This document shows positions 29,802 through 35,080 of a DNA stretch of 64,000 bases, one piece after another; within the stretch, counting starts at the first letter, position 1; every line of letters begins with the position of its first letter. The translations under genes and the position numbers were made by a program. This DNA comes from an uncultured Erysipelotrichaceae bacterium. Lineage in GTDB: Bacteria > Bacillota_I > Bacilli_A > Erysipelotrichales > Erysipelotrichaceae. Below the pieces are notes generated by a model. It saw only the letters and a program-made list of their open reading frames with translations, made no database searches and was not told the DNA's origin. Where the stretch lies: positions 1 through 64,000 of the forward strand of contig CACYNH010000006.1 in NCBI GenBank assembly GCA_902775735.1, read 5' to 3'.

Positions 29802-29854
29802 AAAAAGGCTTTCCGTCTGTGAATCATCACTCACAGGCTGAAAAGCCTTTTTTT
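29802..29854. terminator. Long bidirectional terminator
   Basis: AAAAAGGCTTT...CTGTGA pairs with TCACAG...AAAAGCCTTTTTTT. It ends ptsI on the plus strand and the six-gene operon on the minus strand. Confidence 0.85.
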
Positions 29855-29859
29855 GTTTG

Positions 29860-30087
29860 TCAGGACAGCAGGGAGGAGCCGCTTTCCTCCTGCTCCCTGG
29901 TGAATACCATGACAGCGCGCAGTTCGTTTCCTTTCCGCGGCATGACTGTCTCGAAATGCCAGCCCTGCGCTTCCATCTGCTTTGCGATCTCTGCCGCCTT
30001 GCGGTCAAGAATTGCCAGTCTTTCCTTCAGTGTTTTACCGGAATTTTCGGTTTTGTTCTCAACCGTCACAAAAGTCATTTCCTTCAT
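29860..30087 (-). CDS. Small protein, last gene of six-gene operon (weak DUF4177 likeness)
   Basis: 75 residues: an N-terminal strand (MTFVTVENKT), a long helix (KTLKERLAILDRKAAEIAKQMEAQ), then GWHFETVMP and RAVMVFTRE strands. The strand-helix-GW-strand layout recalls DUF4177 proteins but the match is weak. Its ATG overlaps the stop of the 517-residue gene (ATGA), so translation is coupled. Function unknown. Confidence 0.6.
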   Translation of the reverse strand: MKEMTFVTVENKTENSGKTLKERLAILDRKAAEIAKQMEAQGWHFETVMPRKGNELRAVMVFTREQEESGSSLLS

Positions 30088-31637
30088 GCCTCATACCTCT
30101 GTTCTTTTACGGTGAAGGCAAGACGGCGGTAGGGTTCCTCCCCGTGCCCCGCGCGCAGAACGCGGTTGAGTTCCTCCTCAAGCGCCGGCAGGCAGCTGAA
30201 CAGCTTCGGCAGCATGTATCCCGGGCAGGAGACTTCAAAGACGATCATCTCATCAGTGACGGACACCGGGAAGCAGCCGTCCTGCAGGATTTCTTTGCCG
30301 ATGCTGTCCTCTTCGTCCATGACGATATGGTACTGCGCAGAGATCACTCTCTGCATCGGCGTCGGGGACTTCGGTCTGACAAGGCAGGTGTGCTCTTCAT
30401 CATACAGTTCAAGCAGTTCATCCTTCTCTTCAGGGCTGAAATCTTTCATGTCCATTCCGGCTTTGTTGAAACGGGCCAGCAGGTCTTCGGTATCCTGTGA
30501 CTGCATCAGGCCGCTGACATCGTCAAATCCGCGGGCGACCACCGCCGCCATAACGGCAGGATTGTCAATTCTGTTGATGCAGACAAACCGGCCGCGGTCT
30601 TCATCATAGGCAAGAAGAAGGCTGTCATCAAACTTTTCAAGAGCCTCTGCCGGACTGACCGTCAGTGTTTCCTCCGCGATCCCGTCTTCCAGCAGCGCGG
30701 CAATGGCGCCTTTGAGAGTCGGGGCGGTATAGATCTGTTCATAATGGTGAAGACCGACGCCGCAGATCACATGCAGGAAACATGCCTCGAGCCTGCGTTC
30801 CGTCGCCTGCTCATCCTTTCCATCTTCATTGCCGTCTCTGACACAGGCGGGATCGGCGTCAAGAAGAAGCGTGAAGGGCTCTTGGGATGTCTCCACATCA
30901 AACATGTAGATGTGATGGCACATGATGGATGGGTCGTTAATTTCCCTGAAGTCATCGCGGCGGATGATGACCGGTCCGCCTTCGGCGTGGATCGTGATCT
31001 GATCCTCCTCTGTTTCGATGGCGGTGATCAGGCCTTCTGTATCGCATGCGTCGGGATCGATCATATCATCGGTTGTGCAGAGTCCCGCGCAGCTGCGGTG
31101 GGTGATCTGCTGCAGAAGGGCGATGTCCGCCATGAAATCCCTGAGACCGTCAAAGTCATTGATCCCATAGAATTTCCGGTTGAGTCCGGTATTGAGCGGC
31201 GGGTTTTCCTCACACTCATCAATATCAGATGTGTTCATATACAGCATGGCGTTCTCGTTTTCCAGCTGCAGCCTGAAGGCCATGACGCCGGCGAAGAAGG
31301 AAACCGGCTCGACTTTGAGAATCTCCTCCTCATGAATGAAATACACGTCCTCTTCCGGGGAGGAAAGGGCGAAGCCGTTGCTCTTCGTGGCGTCAGCCGC
31401 GAAGTCATTAAAAACAAATACGGTGGAATCTTCATGGACAAGGAGTCCGGAGCAGCTGTCTGTCTCCGTTAATGCGGTCATCAGGCAGGCAAGCAGGTCA
31501 GGCCGCCGGATTCTTCTGAAGAGTCTGCTGACAAGGGCTCTTCTGGTTACATACTCTTCGCTCAGGTCCGCAAGGTCTCTGGGACGGCATCCGATCGATT
31601 CGGCGGTTTTGGCGATATTCATTTTTTCGGGATTCAT
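30084..31637 (-). CDS. Large acidic protein of unknown function, gene 5 of the six-gene operon
   Basis: 517 residues, soluble and acidic, no signal peptide or membrane segment. A basic helical N-terminus (RRALVSRLFRRIRRPDLLACLM, about residues 32-52) is followed by alternating strand-rich parts, including ITIHAEGGPVIIRRDDF (about 220-236) and a segment near 290-370 with a GAIAALLEDGIAEE helix. I recognise no family or catalytic motif. Four bases separate it from the 135-residue gene upstream, and it overlaps the 75-residue gene by ATGA, so it belongs to one transcript. Start ATG 31637; a second in-frame ATG follows five codons later. Confidence 0.7.
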   Translation of the reverse strand: MNPEKMNIAKTAESIGCRPRDLADLSEEYVTRRALVSRLFRRIRRPDLLACLMTALTETDSCSGLLVHEDSTVFVFNDFAADATKSNGFALSSPEEDVYFIHEEEILKVEPVSFFAGVMAFRLQLENENAMLYMNTSDIDECEENPPLNTGLNRKFYGINDFDGLRDFMADIALLQQITHRSCAGLCTTDDMIDPDACDTEGLITAIETEEDQITIHAEGGPVIIRRDDFREINDPSIMCHHIYMFDVETSQEPFTLLLDADPACVRDGNEDGKDEQATERRLEACFLHVICGVGLHHYEQIYTAPTLKGAIAALLEDGIAEETLTVSPAEALEKFDDSLLLAYDEDRGRFVCINRIDNPAVMAAVVARGFDDVSGLMQSQDTEDLLARFNKAGMDMKDFSPEEKDELLELYDEEHTCLVRPKSPTPMQRVISAQYHIVMDEEDSIGKEILQDGCFPVSVTDEMIVFEVSCPGYMLPKLFSCLPALEEELNRVLRAGHGEEPYRRLAFTVKEQRYEA

Positions 31638-31641
31638 TTCT

Positions 31642-32049
31642 TCACTCTCTCTTTCTGTTCTTTAACGGGATCCGTCTGTTGAAACAAAGACGGATTTTGA
31701 TGTGATGCGCTTCTGCTTCTTCGCAAAGATCAGAAAGAGAGGCCGTTTCACTGATATCAGCCATGAAAAGAATCACGCAGATCCTTTCTTCAGCCGCCTT
31801 GTCCTTTAACCGCTCTTCCCCGATGAGGGTTTCCAGCAGCGTCCGGCAGCTGATCAGCGGGGTAAGGGAAGGGTCGAAAGCCGTGTTTCTGAAATCATCC
31901 CTGTGAATCAGGGAAAGACCGTAGCGGACTTCCCTGATCGCGGGATACCTGTCAAAGAGCAGACGGACCGCCTGACAAAGCTCATCTTCATGAGCGGTAT
32001 AAAAGGGGTCCGGTTGGATGCAGATGATAAAGATCATGCCATCAGCCAC
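31642..32049 (-). CDS. VWA-like small protein, gene 4 of the six-gene operon
   Basis: 135 residues. A first strand MIFIICIQPDPF, a helix (DELCQAVRLLFDRYP), VRYGLSLIHRDDF, a helix, then ICVILFMADIS and a helix before IKIRLCFN. This alternation resembles a von Willebrand factor A fold, but the DxSxS metal-site motif is not present. It overlaps the upstream gene by 16 bases. The fold idea is an inference from pattern only. Confidence 0.6.
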   Translation of the reverse strand: MADGMIFIICIQPDPFYTAHEDELCQAVRLLFDRYPAIREVRYGLSLIHRDDFRNTAFDPSLTPLISCRTLLETLIGEERLKDKAAEERICVILFMADISETASLSDLCEEAEAHHIKIRLCFNRRIPLKNRKRE

Positions 32050-32684
32050 CGCTCGCCGCTGCTGTCTGCGCAGCGCAGCGGGTTTTTCTCAAAGCGGCTG
32101 ATCAGGAACTCCACGGTTCCAAAGATTTCCTCGAAGCAGGCCCGGATGTCGTCGGGTTCTTCCTGCCACGCGGCAAAGGGGAGGCTTCTGCGGGTCAGAC
32201 TTTTGGCGGCGCTGCTGAGGCCGATCGCGGAAAGATGCACGCTGTTTTCAAAGCGGATGGCCGCGAGTTTTCTGCTGTCTTCGCTGTCGGCACAGAGCCC
32301 GGAGCCGCTGACCCAGAAATAATGGGTTTCATAGCTGGTTTCGGGATCTTTTCTGTGCTTTTCACGCATCACTTTTTCCTCGGTGAAAAGAGGGGTGAAT
32401 GTGCAGCATTTGGAAAGGTCCGCCTGCAGCGTCATTTCCAGAAACTCCTCCTGGGTCAGGCACCATTCGGTTTCATGATGGCCTGCACGATGGTCCTTGT
32501 GGTCATGCATGGTACTGCCGCTGTAGAAAACAAAGCGGATGTCCGCCTGTGAGCTCTTCGTGCCAAGACGGTGAAGCAGCACATTGACGCTGCGCAGGTA
32601 CGTGATCCCGGCTTCAGGAAAGCGTTCACCTGTCCAGGGATACAGGTCGATCAGAAAACAGAATTCAAGTTTCTTACTGAACAT
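32034..32684 (-). CDS. Possible VWA-like protein, gene 3 of the six-gene operon
   Basis: 216 residues. The N-terminal strand EFCFLIDLYPWTGERF (Asp13), a helix, DIRFVFYSGSTM, then HYFWVSGSGLC would suit a VWA or Rossmann-like fold in which the metal-site residues have changed. His-rich loop near residue 60 (HDHKDHRAGHHE) could bind metal. No close family is recognised. It overlaps the guanylate-kinase-like gene by 11 bases and the 135-residue gene by 16, so it is in the same transcript. Confidence 0.6.
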   Translation of the reverse strand: MFSKKLEFCFLIDLYPWTGERFPEAGITYLRSVNVLLHRLGTKSSQADIRFVFYSGSTMHDHKDHRAGHHETEWCLTQEEFLEMTLQADLSKCCTFTPLFTEEKVMREKHRKDPETSYETHYFWVSGSGLCADSEDSRKLAAIRFENSVHLSAIGLSSAAKSLTRRSLPFAAWQEEPDDIRACFEEIFGTVEFLISRFEKNPLRCADSSGERWLMA

Positions 32685-33315
32685 GGCGCGCCTCCATTTC
32701 TTCGATCAGCGCACTGAGCTCTTCACGGAAAGAGTCAGGATCGAATGGATCGCCTTCCGCTTTTCCTTCAAGGATTGCTTCCATCCGCTGCTCAATCCGC
32801 TCCGTGTCGTCATTGACGAGCACGGCGTCGTAGAGCCCTGCCGCCTCCAGTTCCCGGCATGAGGCCTTCAGCCTTGCCAGCAGTGTCGCTTCGCTTTCGC
32901 TGCCCCGTCCTTCAAGACGTAATACAAGTTCTTTGGGGCTCGGTACTGCGACGAAGAAACTGACGGTTTCATGATGGGCGAAGAGGGGATGTTCCTTCAT
33001 CTGCCTGAAACCGGCTGCGTCCACTTCCAGCAGCGGTCTTTCCCCGCGCTTTTCAATGCGCCGGATTTCCTCTTTTGAAGTGCCGTAATAATGGCCGGCG
33101 AAGCGTGTATATTCGATAAATTCATCCGAAGCGATCATCTGCGAAATCGCCGCGGTATTGACAAAGTAATAGTTTTCTTCCGGATTGCGCATCGGTCTGT
33201 CGGTATACGAACAGGCCAGCCTGGTATCTCTGTTCCGTGTGAGAAACCGTTTCACCAGGGTGCCTTTGCCGGCTCCGGAAAGGCCGGAAACGAAAATGAT
33301 TCTGCTGTCCTTCAT
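32674..33315 (-). CDS. Guanylate-kinase-like protein, gene 2 of the six-gene operon
   Basis: 213 residues. P-loop GLSGAGKGT with Lys17; SYTDRPMR stands where guanylate kinases have the GMP-binding SxTTRxxR; IEYTRFAGHYYGT, LLEVDAAG and RLEGRGSES follow the family closely, and VNDD ends the core. It could be a true GMP kinase or a paralogue that modifies another nucleotide. Its place in a cassette of unknown genes, not beside rpoZ or priA as is common for gmk, favours a specialised role. ATG 33315 overlaps the stop of the 56-residue ORF. Confidence 0.85.
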   Translation of the reverse strand: MKDSRIIFVSGLSGAGKGTLVKRFLTRNRDTRLACSYTDRPMRNPEENYYFVNTAAISQMIASDEFIEYTRFAGHYYGTSKEEIRRIEKRGERPLLEVDAAGFRQMKEHPLFAHHETVSFFVAVPSPKELVLRLEGRGSESEATLLARLKASCRELEAAGLYDAVLVNDDTERIEQRMEAILEGKAEGDPFDPDSFREELSALIEEMEARHVQ

Positions 33316-33482
33316 CCCCGTAAATCCTCCGTGAATGAAAGGGCATCAGCGGATTTCAGCGGTGAAAGGTCTGTTGAAAAAGAGCAGTCTGTCCATAAGA
33401 CACATTTCCCGCGGAAGGCTGTGAGATTCACCCCGCTTTCTGTGCCGATGAAAACAGCTGCTGTCATGAAATTGTTCTTCAT
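33312..33482 (-). CDS. 56-residue ORF, first gene of the six-gene operon
   Basis: MKNNFMTAAVFIGTESGVNL begins the product; two cysteines (KCVLWTDC) follow, and it ends SFTEDLRG. GGAG stands seven bases before the ATG, and its TGA overlaps the ATG of the guanylate-kinase-like gene (ATGA), the same coupling as at the far end of the operon. It is too short for most gene callers. AVFIGTESGVNLTAFRGKCVLW reads like two strands and a turn. It matches no family I know. Ribosome binding site and coupling are the evidence that it is real. Confidence 0.6.
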   Translation of the reverse strand: MKNNFMTAAVFIGTESGVNLTAFRGKCVLWTDCSFSTDLSPLKSADALSFTEDLRG

Positions 33483-33742
33483 GGGCTGTCTCCTTTTGTT
33501 TATTGATTGTATTTAAGAATTAAGAAAAGAACTCTGTCTGAAAAGAATATAATGATCGCTTTTTCAGAAGGAACATCAGCATCTGTTCCGGTTACAGAAT
33601 CCGGATGCGCGCGCGGACTGAGAGATTCGTGTGCATCGTAGTTGACATTATAAGAATGAGGGGGTGCTCTTTCAATAAGGGAAAATATAAAATTCACAGG
33701 AATTTCACACTTCTTCAAAAAAACCGCAATTATTTTCAGAAA
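33483..33742. other. Intergenic region upstream of the six-gene operon
   Basis: About 260 AT-rich bases between the operon start and the terminator of the phosphatase gene. A TACAAT at about 33507-33512 (minus strand) could be a -10, without a clear -35. The plus strand has an isolated TTGACA. A 90-codon minus-strand frame here (33500-33772) runs through the terminator and has no ribosome binding site; I do not count it. Confidence 0.4.
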
Positions 33743-33768
33743 CAAAAAAAGGCCTCCCTGAGGAGACC
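33743..33768 (-). terminator. Terminator of metallophosphatase gene
   Basis: Minus strand: GGTCTCC, TCA loop, GGGAGGCC, then seven Ts. Confidence 0.85.
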
Positions 33769-34613: not shown

Positions 34614-34961
34614 TTAATGCATGCATTCAGACTGCGTGATTTCCTCCTCGTCCATCCTGTGCATGACGGTCTTGCGGCCTCTCAGTGTGATCATGACACG
34701 GTCGTCTTTTTCCAGCCGGTCAATGTCAGCGGGCTCATCCCCGTCAAACAGGATCAGATCGCTTCCTTCCTTCACTTCAATTCTTCTGCCGCTTTCCCAT
34801 TCATTTTCACCGGAAGAAAGGGATTCCTCGACTTCGATCACAGCGCTGTCTTCATCGCACTCCACCACAACGCCGCTCAGTATTTCCGGCTCCTCTTCGG
34901 CGTGGACCGCGCAGCCGCTCAGTATAACCAGGCACGCAAGTGCCGCTAAAAGTTTTTTCAT
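34614..34961 (-). CDS. Small lipoprotein of unknown function
   Basis: 115 residues. Lipoprotein signal with lipobox LSGC (Cys17), then an acidic mature part of about 98 residues with a small beta-barrel pattern (SGVVVECDEDSAVIEVEE, RRIEVKEGSDLILFDGD, DRVMITLRG) like the short OB/SH3-like lipoproteins of Firmicutes. It would sit on the outer face of the membrane. The ATG at 34961 has AGAGG eight bases before it; an in-frame GTG three codons upstream is possible. Confidence 0.75.
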   Translation of the reverse strand: MKKLLAALACLVILSGCAVHAEEEPEILSGVVVECDEDSAVIEVEESLSSGENEWESGRRIEVKEGSDLILFDGDEPADIDRLEKDDRVMITLRGRKTVMHRMDEEEITQSECMH

Positions 34962-35080
34962 GGCTTTCACCTCTTACATTGTTCATGGTAAGTGTCCGTT
35001 CTGTTTTTCAGGTGGAAGAAAACTGAACAATATGTGAAAAGGGCAGGAACCATGCGTTCAGGCAGGCAGAGTAAAACCAG

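What the first reader, a model, noticed from the sequence alone, without database searches (positions are those of the whole stretch)
29860..33482. Compact six-gene operon of mostly unknown genes with a guanylate-kinase-like enzyme
Six minus-strand genes overlap or nearly abut: ATGA, 11 bp, 16 bp, 4-base gap, ATGA. One is guanylate-kinase-like, one is a 517-residue acidic protein without recognisable domains, two look like VWA folds without metal site, and a small ORF lies at each end. Such tight coupling means the products are made in fixed ratio and likely act together. A nucleotide kinase with VWA-like partners could be a signalling or stress module. No function can be given, which makes it the best candidate here for an undescribed system.
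Basis: partly seen in the sequence, partly recalled or inferred. Interest (0 to 1): 0.7.

Follow-up and report, generated by a model that had tools for sequence, protein, structure and literature searches.

The report
Rare accessory operon with spare guanylate kinase
A gut-type bacterium carries an extra, rarely shared set of tightly packed genes, built around a second, diverged but probably working guanylate kinase and several proteins of unknown kind, inserted between two ordinary genes; it looks like an optional stress or defence module, but what it does is not known.

Summary
Six minus-strand ORFs (29860-33482) form one tight transcription unit behind a near-consensus promoter. The kinase is a real, catalytically intact guanylate-kinase homologue, and the genome has a separate housekeeping gmk. 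No other protein matches Pfam or NCBIfam above cut-off, and PHROGs and PADLOC explain none of them. AlphaFold supports a VWA fold lacking the metal-site serines for the 216-aa protein; nothing supports it for the 135-aa one. The first 56-aa ORF is weakly coding and better read as a translated leader.

The operon is accessory. In seven relatives the flanking genes (ptsI, metallophosphatase) lie side by side without it. Only one other genome of 316 in the order (2 of 70 in the genus) has it, at another locus. There kinase, VWA protein and the 517-aa family keep order and strand behind a homologous ~160-nt leader. Operon proteins are 27-40% identical between these two genomes, against 90-95% for most housekeeping proteins compared. 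The two kinases form their own clade.

Best reading: a rare, fast-diverging accessory module in which a GMP/dGMP kinase acts with a MIDAS-less VWA scaffold and an acidic 517-aa partner, probably in stress or phage defence. Biochemistry is inferred, function unproven.

The parts
33647..33675 (-). promoter-like site TTGAAA-17-TATAAT
   Evidence: 11 of 12 consensus; the G250 operon has TTGATC-17-TATATT at the matching place (read by eye)
33483..33646 (-). 5' leader of about 160 nt, possible hairpin near its 5' end (GATGC...GCATC)
   Evidence: colinear with the leader of the G250 operon: global score 40.5 against shuffle mean -22.7, sd 9.4, 0 of 1000; best of 128 other upstream regions 11.5; local score alone not convincing (9 of 1000 shuffles reach it). 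The hairpin is clear in G250 (z -3.2) but not better than shuffles here (z 0.1). No Rfam family
33312..33482 (-). 56-aa leader ORF with AAGGAG site, stop overlapping the kinase start (ATGA)
   Evidence: weak coding score; in G250 a 37-aa ORF with AGGAGG also ends inside the kinase start codon; the two small proteins are not recognisably similar
32674..33315 (-). accessory guanylate-kinase homologue (P0005)
   Evidence: PF00625 E 8e-32, TIGR03263 151.8 bits, just under its 160.45 cut-off; P-loop, GMP-site and lid arginines kept against yeast Gmk; clade with the G250 kinase 99/94
32034..32684 (-). 216-aa VWA-fold protein without MIDAS serines (P0004)
   Evidence: AlphaFold2 pLDDT 57, pTM 0.62; VIA-align Z about 10-11 to VWA domains; homologue in G250, 27% identity
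31642..32049 (-). 135-aa (131-aa from ATG) protein of unknown fold (P0003)
   Evidence: coding; no significant relative in 70 genomes of the genus; not relatable to P0004
30084..31637 (-). 517-aa acidic protein, undescribed family (P0002)
   Evidence: coding z 14.9; homologue G250:C17:1-1434, 28-30% identity, E 5.6e-43; no Pfam match; model unusable, pLDDT 39
29860..30087 (-). 75-aa protein (P0001), ATGA-coupled to the 517-aa gene
   Evidence: coding z 5.9; no family above cut-off
29803..29848 (.). terminator-like hairpin shared with the convergent ptsI gene
   Evidence: (part of it) and sequence; a similar hairpin stands at the empty site of G231
33751..33768 (-). terminator of the metallophosphatase gene, upstream edge of the extra block
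   Evidence: at the empty sites a similar hairpin follows the same gene

Best explanation
A rare accessory operon of about 3.8 kb sits between the terminators of the convergent genes ptsI and metallophosphatase. From a strong promoter and a conserved leader with a small upstream ORF, it makes a second, diverged guanylate kinase together with a VWA-fold protein lacking the metal site and an acidic 517-aa protein (the core seen in both known copies), plus two small or medium proteins seen only here. SHOWN: operon structure, absence from the same site in relatives, a second copy at another locus, core gene order, leader homology, kinase active-site residues, separation from the housekeeping gmk. 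INFERRED: the kinase phosphorylates GMP, dGMP or a modified guanylate; the VWA protein serves as a protein-binding scaffold that joins it to the 517-aa partner; the module works under stress or during phage attack by changing the guanine-nucleotide pool or making a nucleotide signal. The inferred part rests on patchy presence, rapid divergence and gene content, and is the weak part.
For: Operon and spacing. Separate housekeeping gmk. Flanking genes adjacent without the operon in G250, G231, G197, G236, G230, G222 and G031. Only 2 of 316 genomes of the order have the 517-aa family; in a draw of 392 genomes of the phylum the only hits besides the window were short matches inside mycoplasma-type guanylate kinases. 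The G250 copy has kinase-VWA-517 in the same order and strand at another locus. Operon proteins 27-40% identical against 90-95% for ptsI, metallophosphatase, yebC, hpf and housekeeping gmk in the same genome pair. Leader homology. Kinase clade with support 99/94 outside the housekeeping Gmks. Catalytic residues kept.
Against: No enzyme activity, complex or phenotype is known. No PADLOC family is hit except a weak match (23 bits) of the G250 kinase to VakA and weaker ATPase models, as expected between P-loop proteins. No integrase, transposase or flanking repeat was recognised at the junctions. G+C matches the host, so recent foreign origin is not supported. Some ordinary syntenic genes here diverge as much (the lipoprotein at 34614-34970 is 27-33% identical between close species), so divergence alone does not show conflict. 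Only two copies are known.
Confidence: 0.4

Rival explanations
1. A dedicated anti-phage defence system: the kinase alters or signals through guanine nucleotides on infection and the 517-aa protein is sensor or effector.
For: Patchy presence, extra block at a site that is empty in relatives, strong divergence between close species; nucleotide enzymes are common in defence systems (general knowledge).
Against: No PADLOC family explains any window protein; no neighbouring defence genes or recombinase were recognised; no known effector domain found.
Confidence: 0.25
2. Metabolic accessory: an extra GMP/dGMP kinase that raises purine salvage capacity, with partners that tune or localise it.
For: Complete active site, near-cut-off match to the guanylate-kinase equivalog.
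Against: Does not explain the acidic 517-aa protein and the VWA protein kept with it; the genome already has a Gmk; no nucleotide transporter or salvage gene adjacent.
Confidence: 0.2
3. The kinase domain is a binding module, like the guanylate-kinase domains of MAGUK scaffold proteins, and the operon makes a structural complex.
For: VWA domains are usually protein-binding (general knowledge); strong divergence fits a binding surface; MAGUK proteins appear in the match list.
Against: P-loop GxxGxGKGT, GMP-site residues and lid arginines are all kept; MAGUK domains score much lower than true kinases.
Confidence: 0.12
4. Neutral or decaying accessory DNA without organised function.
For: Rare in the genus; only two copies known.
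Against: Open frames, coding signal and conserved order with a conserved leader across deep divergence point to selection.
Confidence: 0.06

Closest known systems
Bacterial guanylate kinase, Gmk (PF00625, TIGR03263)
   Same: Fold family, P-loop, GMP-site and lid residues
   Different: Second copy, 151.8 bits under the 160.45 equivalog cut-off, short deletion between R43 and Y49, C-terminal GDPFD extension of about 25 aa, own long-branched clade
Accessory gmk beside a YbaK/ProX-like gene in G237 and G222 of the same genus (YbaK reading is by eye)
   Same: Same C-terminal GDPxD extension and the same deletion; next best matches after G250
   Different: 32% identity; next to a 173-aa gene of another kind, no VWA or 517-aa gene; not in the same clade in the tree
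TerY-type VWA proteins of Ter stress systems (from general knowledge)
   Same: Free-standing cytoplasmic-type VWA protein in an operon with a kinase and unknown partners
   Different: MIDAS serines missing; no TerD, TerC, PP2C or protein kinase; no sequence match to a Pfam VWA model
VakA (PADLOC PDLC02911)
   Same: P-loop nucleotide kinase; weak match of the G250 kinase, E 1.7e-5
   Different: The window kinase has no match to it; none of the other proteins matches a defence family

Membership tests
Guanylate kinase (PF00625 fold family) | Pfam gathering score | tested here: met
   110.9 bits against 25.2
Guanylate kinase (PF00625 fold family) | Walker A and GMP-binding residues | tested here: met
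   S36, R40, R43, Y49, E68, Y77, T79, D99, lid R133/R137/R148 align with yeast Gmk (roles of the yeast residues from general knowledge)
Housekeeping Gmk equivalog (TIGR03263) | equivalog score cut-off | tested here: not met
   151.8 against 160.45 bits; outside the housekeeping clade
Housekeeping Gmk equivalog (TIGR03263) | only gmk of the genome | tested here: not met
   second match 170.4 bits on C12
VWA domain (216-aa protein) | VWA fold | tested here: met
   Z about 10-11 to many VWA domains, roughly 150-185 residues at 3.5-4.5 A, but model pLDDT only 57
VWA domain (216-aa protein) | MIDAS DxSxS | tested here: not met
   DLYPW in the window, DLTPA in G250
VWA domain (135-aa protein) | VWA fold or sequence relation to the 216-aa protein | tested here: inconclusive
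   no sequence relation; not modelled
Known anti-phage defence system | match of its proteins to PADLOC models | tested here: not met
   no hit for any window protein up to E 1
Ter / TerY-P stress system | TerD/TerC or PP2C plus protein kinase partners | tested here: not met
   none of the operon proteins matches such families
Insertion of a mobile element | own recombinase or terminal repeats | tested here: inconclusive
   no recombinase among the six ORFs; junctions read only by eye

The most novel reading that the evidence does not exclude
An undescribed conflict or stress system in which a specialised guanylate kinase, a metal-free VWA scaffold and an acidic 517-aa protein form a complex that makes or controls a guanine-nucleotide signal, under control of a conserved RNA leader with an upstream ORF.
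Probability: 0.2. Interest if true: 0.75.

Novelty: new variant of a known kind. Interest (0 to 1): 0.45.

Why it matters
Nucleotide kinases outside housekeeping metabolism are few. An accessory module pairing an intact second guanylate kinase with two undescribed protein families is a defined, small target for testing nucleotide-based stress or defence in a little-studied gut lineage. It also supplies two new protein families (517-aa, MIDAS-less VWA) with a second, deeply diverged example for profile building.

Tried and rejected
Structure of the 517-aa protein: model pLDDT 39 and best Foldseek E-value 0.03, so no fold can be stated; PH-like and DUF4177-like readings by eye (517-aa and 75-aa proteins) found no profile support. 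Profile searches of solved structures with the 517-aa and VWA alignments gave only chance hits. Leader motif searched in the genus: only the two operons carry the full form; the one viral-contig match lies inside a GMP-reductase-like gene and is chance. Weak 517-aa hits in G155 and G031 fall in a tRNA-modification GTPase and in ptsI. Weak phylum hits G327/G403 are 37-residue matches inside mycoplasma-type guanylate kinases. The phage and plasmid matches of the kinase that were opened are housekeeping-like gmk genes on bacterial contigs. Genome contigs and viral-contig scans found no relatives. Literature search found no matching operon.

Full report
Observation. The six ORFs and their spacing are as described. 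The 135-aa ORF can start at an in-frame ATG (32037), which turns the 16-bp overlap into ATGA. Codon use, trained on fifteen other genes of the window, supports five ORFs; the 56-aa ORF is weak. A promoter TTGAAA-17-TATAAT lies 164 nt before that ORF, and terminator-like hairpins close both sides.

Families. Only the kinase has a Pfam match above cut-off, and its best NCBIfam match (guanyl_kin) is just below its cut-off; PHROGs finds a phage guanylate-kinase family for the kinases and PADLOC nothing for the window proteins. Against yeast guanylate kinase all P-loop, GMP-site and lid residues are kept, with a short deletion before Y49 and a C-terminal extension GDPFDPDSF. The 216-aa protein models as a VWA fold (pLDDT 57; Z about 10-11), with the MIDAS serines missing in both homologues. 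The 135-aa protein shows no relation to it. The 517-aa protein could not be folded.

Genome context. The genome (2.26 Mb, 52 contigs, 86% complete) has a housekeeping gmk on another contig. In seven relatives ptsI and the metallophosphatase gene are direct neighbours without the operon. In the five closest relatives the gap is about 70-120 bp; in G031 it is longer (about 370 bp). The extra block in the window begins and ends between the two convergent terminators.

Distribution. In 70 genomes of the genus the 517-aa protein has one real relative, in G250 (30% identity, E 5.6e-43); the profile finds only these two in 316 genomes of the order and no further real one in 392 genomes drawn from the phylum. 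G250 carries leader ORF, kinase, VWA gene and 517-aa gene in the same order at the end of contig C17. Its neighbours there match scattered contigs of the window's genome and close relatives, so the locus is a different one. No gene like the 135-aa one lies between the VWA and 517-aa genes in G250; the contig ends before the 3' small gene could be seen.

Divergence. Between the two genomes ptsI, metallophosphatase, yebC, hpf and housekeeping gmk are 90-95% identical; the operon proteins 27-40%. A lipoprotein gene in conserved position is as divergent (27%), so rapid evolution and separate acquisition from diverged sources are both possible. In a tree of 49 kinases the two accessory ones pair (99/94) on long branches away from housekeeping copies. 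The kinases of G237 and G222, which share the C-terminal extension, lie beside a different gene.

Leader. From the start region to the leader ORF the two operons align end to end better than any of 1000 shuffles and better than 128 other upstream regions. A 5' hairpin is clear in G250 and only suggested in the window. No Rfam family fits. Both leader ORFs have strong ribosome sites and end within the kinase start codon, which suggests translational coupling.

Mechanism. The parts fit an accessory nucleotide-kinase module with a scaffold and an undescribed partner. That the kinase is active, that the proteins bind each other, and that the module answers stress or phage are inferences. A metabolic booster and a pure scaffold remain possible.

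Noticed in passing
L043 9037-10190 and L044 503-1656 (G237, G222): A second gmk with the same C-terminal GDPxD extension, overlapping a 173-aa gene that looks like YbaK/ProX by eye, beside a uracil-permease-like gene: another undescribed accessory gmk pair.
   Followed up: partly
window 34614-34970: A small lipoprotein-like gene in conserved position between the metallophosphatase gene and yebC is only 27-33% identical between species whose flanking proteins are 90-97% identical: unusually fast divergence.
   Followed up: partly
L098 5663-10464 (G250): Three genes, including one that looks like a peptidase-type ABC transporter by eye, lie beside hpf in G250 and are not seen at the corresponding place in the window: a second accessory block in this neighbourhood.
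   Followed up: no
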